A stretch of 44,614 nucleotides of DNA from a bacterium (GTDB lineage: Bacteria > UBP6 > UBA1177): contig JAGCNV010000078.1 in NCBI GenBank assembly GCA_017645765.1, forward strand, positions 1 to 44,614. The letters run 5' to 3'. Position 1 is the stretch's first letter. Each line of letters opens with the position of its first letter. The position numbers were made by a program, and so were the translations under genes. The notes beneath the pieces were generated by a model. It did not search any database, was not told the origin of the DNA, and was given only the letters and a program-made list of their open reading frames with translations. Positions 11,911-44,602 of the stretch are shown in pieces.

Positions 11911-11977
11911 ACAATTCGCCGCCTTTCGAAATGTCGGAATTCGATAATTCGATATATCGACAAAATTCTGCGGCGTC
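11911..11977 (-). repeat. 8-bp-period intergenic repeat element, copy A
   Basis: Lies between the convergent ends of ispG and the O-methyltransferase. Read on the minus strand: GACGCCGC, a short T-rich link, then five units of the form TCGNNNNN (11960 down to 11922) with lengths 8-8-7-8-8, ending TCGAAAGG, then GGCGGCG (11923-11917) and AATTG. The outer CGCCGC (11917-11922) and GCGGCG (11970-11975) are inverted. Clearly related to copies B, C and D by order of parts, by the terminal unit and by the arms. No second CGT array is attached here. Confidence 0.8.
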
Positions 11978-17553: not shown

Positions 17554-19422
17554 TTAGTTATTGTTTGACGGAATAATTATACGAATTAGGTGGCTTGAAA
17601 GATACGAACCGTTGCCAAGAGCGGCGGCGTGGACATCGAATACCTGCAAATTGTTCGTTGAATTTACACAGAAATCGTTGTAGAAGTGAACATCGAAGGT
17701 AACATCGGTTCCCTGTTTTACAGATTTGAAAGTTGTTTCTGTCTGACTGTTTACACCATTCGGAGGATCTGCTTCAAATGTTTGTGATGATTTTACAAAA
17801 TTTGCCGCATTTATGCCGTTGCAGTTGTCGTCACTGATTCCGCCTGTGGTGACATCCATATCGATCAATTCCGTGAGTTGGTTGATTGCATTTGTGACTT
17901 CATCGCCGATACCTGTTCCGTCCTGGTTCTCAGTGTGATAGAGGAACGGTTCGTCGTCCGCGTCAAGAGAACCTGTTGCTTCTGCAAATGTCGTAAACCA
18001 GTCTTTTGCCGAATTGGTTTTTGTAGTACCGTTGTCATCGAAACCTGAATCGATGCCGATGAATTTTGCGCCGATTCCGTTCATCGCGGCGATTGCCATG
18101 TCAATCGAAAGCTTTTTTGTTCCCTCATCGAACATGCAGGATGTGCTGAGAGATATCTGTGAACCGTAGGGAATACAGTCGTCTGAATTTTCGTCTGTGA
18201 TTACGACGAAAATGGGCATTGATTTCTTTCTCATGCAGAGAGCACCAGCCGTTCCGAGTTTATCTGCACCTGAGCAGTTAGCTTTTGCAACATTGTATTC
18301 TGTACTGTGCATTATATTACTGTCCTCACATTTGTTCATTGCACACTGGAGAAAGCTTCCGTTGTAAGCTTCGCCGGTTGCAGCAAGGTAGAGCGCGTAA
18401 ATTGCAAGCTCATTGCTCTGGTCGCTTTTCAGGTTTCCTATCGCGTTCTGAAGCAGATCCGCGTCGAAAGTCATTGTCTGCTCGACGACGTAAGGCTTTT
18501 CCCAGCCGAAACTTACAAGACCGAACGAAGCGTAGTTAGGGTTGTCTGCAAACTGGTTTGCGATCGCATTGACAACCTTTTCTTTTACTTCTTCTTTGAA
18601 TTTGTTAATCTCTGCATTCATCGAGCCGGAGTTATCGAAGAAAATCGCGACATCGATACCTTGGATTTTTGTCTGGAAAGTAAGTCTTCTCGTTGCATCT
18701 GCCGGAGCGTTGTAGGGAAGAACGATATAAAAAAGTCCGGCCGGAATATGGTCGCCGTCATCAAGCGGATCCGAGCCGTAAGCTATTTCAGCAATGTCGT
18801 CGTCGCCGTCGCCGTCAGTATCTTTTACGAGCGGATCGGTTCCGTGTTGCGTTTCTTTTTTGTCGGAAAGACCGTCTCCGTCACTGTCTCTGTCAAGGAA
18901 ATCGGGAGTGCCGTCATAATCGGTGTCTCTGCACGGCTGCTCGGGACATTCCTGATTGTCAGGGATACCGTCTTCGTCACTGTCTGAATCCATGCAGTTC
19001 GGAAGCGAGTCTCCGTCAAAGTCTTCGCATCCCTCAACGCCGTTAGGAATGCCGTCACCGTCGTCATCAGCATCGTCCTGACCGCATATGCATGTTTCGA
19101 CAGGAACATCAGTATCATCTGTCGGGTCCGGATCTTCCGGTTCATCAGACGTGTCACTGATGTCAGTTGGTTCTTCATAATCAGTGTCACCGATGTCAGT
19201 CGGTTCTTCATAATCAGTGTCACCGATGTCAACCGGTTCTTCCGCAGTATCACCTGTGTCGTCTGGCTCTTCCGCCGTGTCGGATGTGTCCGGTATCTCC
19301 GGTGTATCGTCATGCGTTTCCTGCCATGCTTCTCTGATTTCACCTGTAAGATCCGATCTTCCGCAGGATAAAATGAACGCAAAAGTTAAGCAGAAACAAA
19401 GTGTTGCAACTATTTTCCTCAT
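17554..19422 (-). CDS. VWA lipoprotein with thrombospondin type 3 repeats
   Basis: A 622-residue exported lipoprotein. The signal peptide ends FILSC (Cys20). Residues about 35-110 are an Asp/Glu/Thr/Pro repeat (units like DIGDTDYEEPT) encoded by 33-bp DNA repeats. Residues about 115-225 hold calcium-binding thrombospondin type 3 repeats: DADDDGDGIPNGVEG, DSDEDGIPD, DRDSDGDGLSDKKE and DTDGDGDDD. A von Willebrand factor A domain (about 245-500) follows, with the MIDAS motif DNSGSM and later Thr/Asp candidates around VVITDENSDD. The last 100 residues form a beta-rich tail. The layout suggests a surface adhesin or matrix protein held out on a calcium-stiffened stalk. GGAGG precedes the start; it follows the CsgG/LpoB-like gene by nine bases. 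Confidence 0.92.
   Translation of the reverse strand: MRKIVATLCFCLTFAFILSCGRSDLTGEIREAWQETHDDTPEIPDTSDTAEEPDDTGDTAEEPVDIGDTDYEEPTDIGDTDYEEPTDISDTSDEPEDPDPTDDTDVPVETCICGQDDADDDGDGIPNGVEGCEDFDGDSLPNCMDSDSDEDGIPDNQECPEQPCRDTDYDGTPDFLDRDSDGDGLSDKKETQHGTDPLVKDTDGDGDDDIAEIAYGSDPLDDGDHIPAGLFYIVLPYNAPADATRRLTFQTKIQGIDVAIFFDNSGSMNAEINKFKEEVKEKVVNAIANQFADNPNYASFGLVSFGWEKPYVVEQTMTFDADLLQNAIGNLKSDQSNELAIYALYLAATGEAYNGSFLQCAMNKCEDSNIMHSTEYNVAKANCSGADKLGTAGALCMRKKSMPIFVVITDENSDDCIPYGSQISLSTSCMFDEGTKKLSIDMAIAAMNGIGAKFIGIDSGFDDNGTTKTNSAKDWFTTFAEATGSLDADDEPFLYHTENQDGTGIGDEVTNAINQLTELIDMDVTTGGISDDNCNGINAANFVKSSQTFEADPPNGVNSQTETTFKSVKQGTDVTFDVHFYNDFCVNSTNNLQVFDVHAAALGNGSYLSSHLIRIIIPSNNN
19159..19257 (-). repeat. 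33-bp in-frame tandem repeats in the VWA lipoprotein linker
   Basis: Two near-identical 33-bp units (19159-19191 and 19192-19224) and a third diverging unit (19225-19257), each encoding an 11-residue DIGDTDYEEPT-like block. Being a multiple of three, copy-number change would lengthen or shorten the acidic linker without a frameshift. Confidence 0.85.
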
Positions 19423-25085: not shown

Positions 25086-25183
25086 GACAAAATCTCCTCA
25101 AAATTATAAAAATTCAATTGTTATAGCACAAAAAAACGGGAGTTTTATAGTCAAGCGATAGTTAAATGCAAGAAATTGTCTTG

Positions 25184-25240
25184 AACTTCCTTAAACTCCC
25201 TTAAACTCCCTAGATTCCCTAAACTCCCTAATCCCTAACT
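25184..25240. repeat. Degenerate CTCCCTAAA-type short tandem array
   Basis: Six to seven imperfect units of the form AACTCCCTA/TTA, with period 10, 10, 10, then 8, 9 and 7 bases, lying between the divergent pheT and ABC-transporter genes and just upstream of the ABC promoter. The later units read like CCCTAA repeats. Not related to the TCGA element. Possibly slipped-strand expansion or a binding array; nothing further can be said. Confidence 0.75.
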
Positions 25241-25251
25241 TCTTTTCTTTT

Positions 25252-25279
25252 TTGCTCTTTTGATTGTTTTCACTATAAT
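25252..25279 (+). promoter_or_regulatory. Promoter of the ABC-2 exporter operon
   Basis: TTGCTC (25252-25257), 16 bases, perfect TATAAT (25274-25279), about 32 bases before the ATG at 25312. The start is then set by GGGAGG. The strongest-looking -10 box in the window. Confidence 0.6.
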
Positions 25280-25311
25280 CAACGGTTTTTTGATTTTTAG
25301 GGAGGAATCGT

Positions 25312-27478: not shown

Positions 27479-27480
27479 CC

Positions 27481-27547
27481 GCGCCGCAAAAATAGTGTCG
27501 AAATACCGAAATCTCGAAATATCGATATATCGAAAGGCGGCGAATCG
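27481..27547 (+). repeat. 8-bp-period intergenic repeat element, copy B1
   Basis: First of two tandem copies between the convergent bcp and helicase genes. GCGCCGC (27481-27487), a short link, five exact 8-bp units beginning TCG/CCG (27498-27537) that end TCGAAAGG, then GGCGGCG (27536-27542) and AATCG. The phase is exactly 8 bp throughout. Confidence 0.85.
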
Positions 27548-27573
27548 TTATTTTCGACGCCGCCAATTTTTTT
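27536..27573 (+). terminator. Intrinsic terminator formed at the B1/B2 junction
   Basis: GGCGGCG (27536-27542) pairs perfectly with CGCCGCC (27558-27564) across a 15-base loop, followed by AA and seven T residues (27567-27573). This is a textbook rho-independent terminator for bcp on the plus strand. It arises from the 3' arm of one repeat copy meeting the 5' arm of the next. Confidence 0.75.
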
Positions 27574-27624
27574 GTCGAAATATCGAAATTTCGTAATCTC
27601 GAAATATCGAAAGGCGGCGAATCG
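27556..27624 (+). repeat. 8-bp-period intergenic repeat element, copy B2
   Basis: Second tandem copy, 77 bp after B1. GACGCCGCC (27556-27564), AATTTTTTTG, five exact 8-bp units (27575-27614; TCGNAATN type) ending TCGAAAGG, then GGCGGCG (27613-27619) and AATCG. The outer CGCCGCC and GGCGGCG arms form a perfect 7-bp inverted repeat. This is the best-preserved copy. Confidence 0.87.
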
Positions 27625-27633
27625 ATAAAAACG

Positions 27634-33660: not shown

Positions 33661-33692
33661 CGTCACGGCGTTCCGTCGTAACGTCGTTTCGT
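33661..33692. repeat. CGTNNCGN array (four 8-bp units) attached to copy C
   Basis: Four exact 8-bp units starting CGT (33661, 33669, 33677, 33685), two bases after the pepT stop, running without a gap into copy C. Matched by a four-unit array at 44438-44469. Confidence 0.8.
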
Positions 33693-33748
33693 CGCCTCGA
33701 AATGTCGAAATATCGAAATTACGAAATATCGACAAATATTGGGCGGCG
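33693..33748 (-). repeat. 8-bp-period intergenic repeat element, copy C
   Basis: Between pepT and the tRNA gene. On the minus strand: ACGCCGCC (3' arm on plus, GGCGGCG at 33742-33748), a short T-rich link, then five exact 8-bp units TCGATATT/TCGTAATT/TCGACATT type (33732 down to 33693), the last being TCGAGGCG. The near-side arm is decayed (GGCGACG). Together with 33661-33692 it makes nine consecutive 8-mers in one phase. Confidence 0.82.
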
Positions 33749-44437: not shown

Positions 44438-44469
44438 CGTCACGTCGTCACGCCGTTACGTCGTTACGG
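44438..44469. repeat. CGTNNCGN array (four 8-bp units) attached to copy D
   Basis: Four exact 8-bp units, two CGTCACGN and two CGTTACGN, upstream of the amylase promoter. A short T-run (44470-44474) then leads into copy D. Same order as at 33661-33748. Confidence 0.82.
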
Positions 44470-44474
44470 TTTTT

Positions 44475-44539
44475 GCCGCCGGTCGACATGTCGAAAAATC
44501 GATATTTCGATATGTCGACAAAAAAGTGTTGCGGCGGCG
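44475..44539 (-). repeat. 8-bp-period intergenic repeat element, copy D
   Basis: On the plus strand GCCGCC (44475-44480), five exact 8-bp units whose minus-strand form begins TCG (44479-44518), a link with six A residues, then GCGGCGGCG (44531-44539). The block 44482-44519 is also a large inverted repeat: a 15-base arm beginning GTCGACATGTCG matches the other arm with one mismatch. Confidence 0.85.
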
Positions 44540-44602
44540 AAAAAAATATTTCAATGAAATTGGCTTGTTATGCAAAAAAACAAAAAAAGTGAAAAAAATA
44601 AT

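What the first reader, a model, noticed from the sequence alone, without database searches (positions are those of the whole stretch)
33661..33732. Two different 8-bp arrays fused into nine consecutive 8-mers
Before copy C, four CGTNNCGN units (33661-33692) run straight into the five TCGA-type units (33693-33732) with no change of phase. The same CGT array, also four units, accompanies copy D at 44438-44469. Two arrays with different letters but the same 8-bp period imply a common mechanism that fixes the period, such as a repeat protein reading 8 bp per module or a templated duplication process, rather than a single ancestral sequence.
Basis: seen in the sequence. Interest (0 to 1): 0.65.

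Follow-up and report, generated by a model that had tools for sequence, protein, structure and literature searches.

The report
Repeated octad DNA arrays between genes
In one genus of uncultured gut bacteria, short 31-36 base arrays with a strict 8-base rhythm are scattered between genes; their rhythm letters are kept by natural selection while the letters in between drift freely, which points to an unknown DNA-binding protein that reads DNA in 8-base steps.

Summary
The arrays are real. Two array classes recur there: CGTNACGN x4 (31 bp), and the "TCGA" class, whose underlying code is (CGNNATNN)x4+CG: nine self-complementary dinucleotides, CG and AT alternating every 4 bp. The second occurs in 15/15 congeners; 371 other genomes show at most uniform microsatellites. 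Unit number is nearly fixed. In orthologous copies the fixed letters diverge 5-8%, the N letters 29-36%, like third codon positions: purifying selection on the code. Mirrored N letters do not co-vary, so a hairpin of the array is not what is kept. Elements are inserted, absent, inverted or exchanged for the other class at the same site in different species, mostly at gene 3' ends and convergent junctions. Y1 transposase (14/15), RHH_1 and MetJ (15/15) are missing. Best guess: an interspersed palindromic repeat carrying a site for dimers tiling duplex DNA every 8 bp. No protein was found.

The parts
33661..33691 (+). Copy C, CGT array: four CGTNNCGN units, 2 bp after the stop codon of the M20 peptidase gene
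33693..33696 (.). Copy C, remnant (CGCC) of the left arm, which reads TTCGCCGCC in the orthologue of G012
33697..33732 (.). Copy C, CG/AT (TCGA-type) array, nine palindromic dinucleotides at 4-bp steps
33742..33748 (.). Copy C, right arm GGCGGCG after a 9-nt spacer (CAAATATTG)
44438..44468 (+). Copy D, CGT array, four units
44470..44481 (.). Copy D, left arm (TTTTTGCCGCCG)
   Evidence: inverted repeat I2
44483..44518 (.). Copy D, CG/AT (TCGA-type) array
44532..44543 (.). Copy D, right arm (CGGCGGCGAAAA)
   Evidence: inverted repeat I2
27498..27533 (.). Copy A, CG/AT (TCGA-type) array in a convergent gap
   Evidence: orthologues
27536..27547 (.). Copy A, right arm GGCGGCGAATCG
27558..27564 (.). 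Copy B, left arm CGCCGCC
27575..27610 (.). Copy B, CG/AT (TCGA-type) array
27613..27624 (.). Copy B, right arm GGCGGCGAATCG (pairs with CGACGCCGCC apart from a two-base AA bulge)
11941..11962 (.). Short or decayed CG/AT array in a convergent gap whose orthologue in G005 holds an array

Best explanation
The arrays are cis-acting DNA sites, kept by selection, carried by a short interspersed repeat family of this genus. SHOWN: each array is a run of self-complementary blocks on an 8-bp grid: CG and AT dinucleotides every 4 bp, nine in all, or four CGTNACG heptamers. The block letters are conserved, the letters between drift at about the third-codon-position rate, the number of blocks is nearly fixed, polarity ignores transcription, and mirrored N letters do not co-vary. 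CG/AT arrays usually sit between complementary GC-rich arms with a spacer of about 9 nt on one side. Elements are present, absent, inverted or swapped at orthologous sites, mostly just after stop codons and in convergent gaps. INFERRED: a dimeric protein, or two paralogues with different letter preference, binds duplex DNA with one dimer per 8 bp and about four dimers side by side, in the way MetJ covers adjacent 8-bp metboxes and ParB-pSM19035 needs at least four contiguous 7-bp repeats. The bound array would act as a boundary at gene ends (roadblock to read-through or antisense transcription, or an anchor for topology or nucleoid proteins). The arms allow inversion and probably spread by an unidentified route.
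For: Intergenic and period-specific: 27 against 0 genic for period 8, 0-4 for scrambled units. Block number: 35 of 55 CG/AT runs have exactly nine dinucleotides and 24 of 35 CGT runs exactly four units from lenient seeds. Selection: 30 orthologous CG/AT pairs, fixed letters 27/540 changed against N 174/540 (p 8e-33); 19 CGT pairs, 36/456 against 45/133 (p 2e-12); third codon positions 0.27-0.36, second 0.04-0.09. No hairpin signal: in TCGA-type arrays mirrored N4/N7 complementarity is at chance (z +1.3 or -1.5 by orientation); off-centre mirrors score as high as the central one; in CGT arrays mirrored N3 pairs are complementary in only 2 of 90. Polarity random against genes: 7 same, 5 opposite. 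Arms complementary (6 bp or more) in 38 of 58 elements against about 20 with swapped flanks. Convergent gaps 12/38 against 18/287 others (p 2e-5). Empty, swapped and inverted orthologous sites. 15/15 congeners, no non-uniform array among the matches shown for 371 other genomes.
Against: No binding protein was found: RHH_1 and MetJ profiles match none of the 15 genomes. Half of the orthologous comparisons show no array, so any single site is dispensable. The strong avoidance of complementary mirrored N letters in CGT arrays is not predicted by simple dimer tiling. Orthologous pairs share branches, so the p values overstate independence. Arms with compensating letters suggest that a DNA or RNA hairpin matters for part of the element. 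Function at gene ends rests on position alone.
Confidence: 0.5

Rival explanations
1. A selfish interspersed palindromic repeat (MITE- or RPE-like) mobilised in trans by an unidentified recombinase; the array is the recognition site of that enzyme and has no host function.
For: Empty and occupied orthologous sites, inversion in place, copies inside a TonB-like coding sequence, arms forming an inverted repeat, copy number varying widely between species.
Against: Fixed letters stay conserved in copies that remain at the same site in different species, which a recognition site needed only for jumping would not show. Y1 transposase is absent from 14 of 15 genomes. No target-site duplication was evident by eye in the empty-site comparison at the M20-tRNA gap.
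Confidence: 0.25
2. The element works as a hairpin in RNA (terminator, 3'-end stabiliser) or in single-stranded DNA, like REP/BIME sequences.
For: Elements with arms fold better than shuffled sequence (mean z -2.7 for CG/AT elements); position at gene 3' ends and convergent gaps; complementary arms.
Against: The array itself, the most conserved part, does not keep base pairing at its N positions and in CGT arrays avoids it; CGT elements fold barely better than shuffles (z -0.8); polarity is random with respect to the gene.
Confidence: 0.17
3. A genome-wide recognition sequence for another process (DNA uptake, chromosome segregation, topoisomerase target).
For: Interspersed at gene ends, genus-specific, dispensable at single sites, conserved letters.
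Against: Orientation along the chromosome could not be tested because the genome is in 109 contigs; 31-36 bp is long for uptake sequences (general knowledge); tens rather than hundreds of copies per genome.
Confidence: 0.05
4. Ordinary microsatellite expansion of an 8-bp unit.
For: Tandem 8-bp period; similar letters give long uniform arrays in other bacteria.
Against: Here the unit number is fixed and units are diverged; N letters vary while fixed letters are conserved.
Confidence: 0.03

Closest known systems
REP/BIME elements (GTAG) with TnpA-REP (RAYT)
   Same: Short interspersed intergenic palindromes of restricted taxonomic range, combined as mosaics, near gene 3' ends.
   Different: No RAYT in 14 of 15 genomes, no GTAG foot; the core is a fixed-length octad array whose N letters do not pair.
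CGTC-tagged REPs and Rickettsia palindromic elements (PMC3733652)
   Same: No dedicated transposase known; some copies lie in frame inside genes, as here in a TonB-like linker.
   Different: Those have 8-9 bp stems with 4-5 nt loops (PMC3733652); here a 31-36 bp periodic core.
MetJ metboxes (PMC3228920)
   Same: One dimer per 8-bp palindromic box; two or more adjacent boxes are needed for repression.
   Different: Different letters, MetJ absent, position at gene ends rather than upstream of methionine genes.
parS of pSM19035 with RHH ParB/omega (PMC9499535)
   Same: Contiguous short repeats, one dimer each, at least four needed for full activity.
   Different: 7-bp period, non-palindromic heptads; RHH_1 not found.
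TAACTGA heptamer repeats of Beggiatoaceae, Cyanobacteria and Bacteroidetes (PMC4679880)
   Same: Intergenic short-period arrays found many times in a genome, function unknown.
   Different: Identical units, variable copy number (2-6, up to 43), placed at start codons.

Membership tests
GTAG REP / RAYT system | RAYT (Y1_Tnp, PF01797) encoded in the genome | tested here: not met
   absent in 14/15 genomes incl. the window's own
GTAG REP / RAYT system | GTAG tetranucleotide at the foot of the palindrome | tested here: not met
   flanks of 58 CG/AT and 45 CGT elements show GC arms or no arm, no common GTAG by inspection
CGTC REP / RPE | 8-9 bp stem, 4-5 nt loop, CGTC tag | tested here: not met
   arms of 6-10 bp enclose a 36-bp array plus a spacer of about 9 nt
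CGTC REP / RPE | some copies inside coding sequences | tested here: met
   four CG/AT arrays in frame in the linker of a 306-aa TonB-like ORF, L069 9611-10531
MITE | terminal inverted repeats | tested here: met
   CG/AT class 38/58 with complementary arms of 6 bp or more; CGT class 10/45, like swapped flanks
MITE | target-site duplication | tested here: inconclusive
   empty and filled sites compared by eye at the M20-tRNA gap; no clear duplication
MetJ operator | tandem 8-bp palindromic boxes | tested here: met
   8-bp grid of self-complementary blocks
MetJ operator | MetJ protein present | tested here: not met
   PF01340 0/15, positive control E. coli found
RHH ParB/omega parS | CopG/omega-type RHH protein present | tested here: inconclusive
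   RHH_1 PF01402 0/15 while 8 of 14 controls ring; other RHH families not searched
Intrinsic terminator | G+C-rich perfect stem followed by a T run | tested here: inconclusive
   arms are G+C-rich, but array pairing is not kept and polarity is random; T runs were not counted systematically
Microsatellite | near-identical units, variable copy number | tested here: not met

The most novel reading that the evidence does not exclude
A so far undescribed DNA-recognition system: a protein or protein pair that reads duplex DNA by self-complementary blocks on an 8-bp grid (CG/AT every 4 bp, or CGTNACG) and ignores the letters in between, with a fixed number of modules per site. Its sites are spread over a chromosome at gene ends by a palindromic cassette in which one class of core can be exchanged for another.
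Probability: 0.35. Interest if true: 0.85.

Novelty: new variant of a known kind. Interest (0 to 1): 0.62.

Why it matters
Short interspersed palindromes are common in bacteria, but their cores are usually hairpins. Here the conserved part is a fixed-length periodic code in which letters between the blocks are free, so selection on the code can be measured directly from orthologous copies. If a protein reads it, this is a modular DNA-recognition scheme of a fresh kind and a tractable target; if not, it is a clear example of a repeat family kept by selection in an uncultured lineage with no identified mobiliser.

Tried and rejected
Hairpin in the array: mirrored N letters tested in three data sets, not supported. 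The first test gave high z for N0/N3, but it mixed orientations and letter classes; repeating it on TCGA-type arrays alone removed the signal. Tandem duplication of neighbouring units: rejected. Strand-specific RNA signal: polarity random. RAYT, RHH_1 and MetJ as partner: absent. Fusion of the two arrays as one element: phases vary. Rfam: only the tRNA in the window. Scan of all species genomes with the CGT pattern: mostly uniform tandem repeats in high-GC genomes, apart from congeners and an Acidobacteriota MAG. A first attempt to define the element by the exact frame CGCCGCC...GGCGGCGAATCG was too strict (8 hits).

Full report
The observation. The letters are as described: four CGTNNCGN units at 33661-33691 and a TCGA-type array at 33697-33732, with CG dinucleotides on one 8-bp grid across both; copy D has four CGT units at 44438-44468 and its own TCGA array at 44483-44518. 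In about 797 kb read from the same genome (window plus L036-L075), scans for TCGANATN and CGTNACGN found 27 and 20 arrays, against 0-4 for six scrambled units. A letter-blind scan found period 8 in 27 intergenic and 0 genic places; the only other intergenic family of note has period 9.

Where it is. The window is one contig of a 2.65 Mb, 109-contig genome in a genus of 15 species genomes. CGT arrays occur in 12 of 15 congeners and TCGA arrays in 15 of 15, and neither in the other genomes of those searches.

The real code. At orthologous sites the TCGA letters themselves are not kept: in G005 and G009 the same frame holds units such as CCGGGATC. What is kept is CG and AT alternating every 4 bp, nine dinucleotides in all. 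The exact pattern CGNNATNN x4 + CG is found in 15/15 congeners (4-56 places each). Among 371 other genomes only five match: four as uniform tandem repeats (G108, G154, G177, G271) and a fifth, G289, with one match whose letters were not shown. In 79 exact arrays the base after CG is almost never C (5/632 on both strands), so the N letters are free but not fully. CGT arrays are CGTNACG four times, with N mostly pyrimidine on one strand (mean 5.7 of 7, null 4.6).

Selection. In 30 orthologous pairs of CG/AT arrays, fixed letters differ at 27/540 and N letters at 174/540; in 19 CGT pairs 36/456 and 45/133. Third codon positions between the same genus members differ at 0.27-0.36, second positions at 0.04-0.09. 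N letters thus look unconstrained and fixed letters constrained. Pairs are not independent and arrays broken by gaps were left out, so the size of the effect is approximate. Block number is narrow: 35 of 55 CG/AT runs have nine dinucleotides and 24 of 35 CGT runs four units from lenient seeds.

Not a hairpin array. If pairing were selected, mirrored N letters should co-vary. For TCGA-type arrays they are at chance; for the exact set, mirrors about shifted centres score as high as the central one, which reflects overall composition; for CGT arrays mirrored N3 letters are complementary in only 2 of 90 cases, an avoidance that I cannot explain. The arms of CG/AT elements are different: they vary (CGCCGCC, GCGCGC, GGCGCC, GCGGCGC) but match each other in 38/58 elements against about 20 with swapped flanks, with a spacer of 8-10 nt on one side and 0-2 on the other.

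Position and turnover. Arrays lie in 12 of 38 convergent gaps against 18 of 287 others (p 2e-5), CGT arrays often within a few bases of a stop codon; polarity is random against the gene. At the gap between the M20 peptidase and tRNA-Met (copy C), G006, G013 and G014 have nothing; G000 and G012 have CGT plus CG/AT; G001 and G002 hold the same 62-bp CG/AT element as G012, letter for letter, in the opposite orientation; G005 and G009 hold CCG-type cores; G008 has two CGT arrays. At the convergent gap 27479-27633, G000-G002 have CG/AT arrays, G006, G007, G011 and G012 CGT arrays, G005 and G009 CCG-type arrays, G014 nothing. In L058/L134/L143 one frame (GCCGCC...GGCGGC) holds a CG/AT array in one species and a CGT array in others. 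Array-bearing gaps tend to be array-bearing in relatives too (9 of 18 against 8 of 90, p 1.5e-4), though comparisons around the window dominate this count.

The fused nine units. In G012 the two arrays of copy C are 18 bp apart with the left arm TTCGCCGCC between them; in G000 only CGCC remains. Offsets between CGT and CG/AT arrays across 11 other pairs are spread over six of eight phases. The continuous phase in copy C is therefore best read as a chance result of losing part of the left arm.

Mechanism. The evidence asks for something that reads duplex DNA symmetrically in 8-bp steps over about 32-36 bp. MetJ (one dimer per 8-bp palindromic metbox, two or more adjacent sites needed, PMC3228920) and the RHH ParB of pSM19035 (one dimer per 7-bp repeat, four contiguous repeats needed, PMC9499535) show that such tiling exists. 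Neither family was found: MetJ and RHH_1 profiles match 0/15 genomes while controls ring. Y1 transposases, which move REPs, are absent from 14/15. The protein and the mobiliser are therefore unknown, and the boundary function at gene ends is inference from position.

Relation to known elements. In dispersal and position the family resembles REP, RPE and MITE sequences, including copies in frame in the linker of a TonB-like protein (L069 9611-10531; the TonB reading is mine from the sequence, not a profile hit); CGTC-type REPs also lack a known transposase (PMC3733652). It differs in its core. I file it as a new variant of interspersed palindromic repeats, with the categorically new reading (a new modular DNA code and reader) left open at about one in three.

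Noticed in passing
window 25174-25240: A 9-bp tandem array (CTCCCTAAA-like) absent from the orthologous gap in G006, G014 and G005; a genome-wide intergenic period-9 family.
   Followed up: partly
L047 6723-6791 (G000:C22): A GTAG...CTAC palindrome (GTAGAGACGTC...GGCGTCTCTAC) lies in a convergent gap where G006 has a CGT array; related palindromes (AGACGTTTCAGGAAACGTCT) recur in intergenic DNA.
   Followed up: no
G006 orthologue of window gap 25086-25311; L178 for the gap L045 8462-8942: Insertions of a GTCATTCTGAG..GAAG..GAAGAATC type repeat in relatives, absent in G000.
   Followed up: no
L069 9611-10531: TonB-like 306-aa ORF whose linker is built of four in-frame CG/AT arrays (RNLEISKSRNIDENNSAQD repeats); the relative in L097 has arrays with other letters.
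   Followed up: partly
L311-L360 (viral contigs): 28 non-uniform (CGNNATNN)4CG arrays in viral contigs, several on one contig (L343+L348, L327+L360, L318+L350, L347, L354); L345, L360 and L331 also have the GC arms and spacer. The code may exist outside this genus.
   Followed up: partly
L114, L135, L149, L151, L174: Acidobacteriota MAG JZ-1 carries a dispersed repeat with four non-uniform CGT units, in four of the five copies followed by a similar CTTGAAAAATCG stretch.
   Followed up: no
CGT arrays across the genus: Mirrored N letters avoid complementarity (2 of 90), beyond what the pyrimidine strand bias gives (expected 11); unexplained.
   Followed up: partly
window 19151-19242: 33-bp tandem repeat (2.8 copies, 93% matches) inside a predicted coding region.
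   Followed up: no
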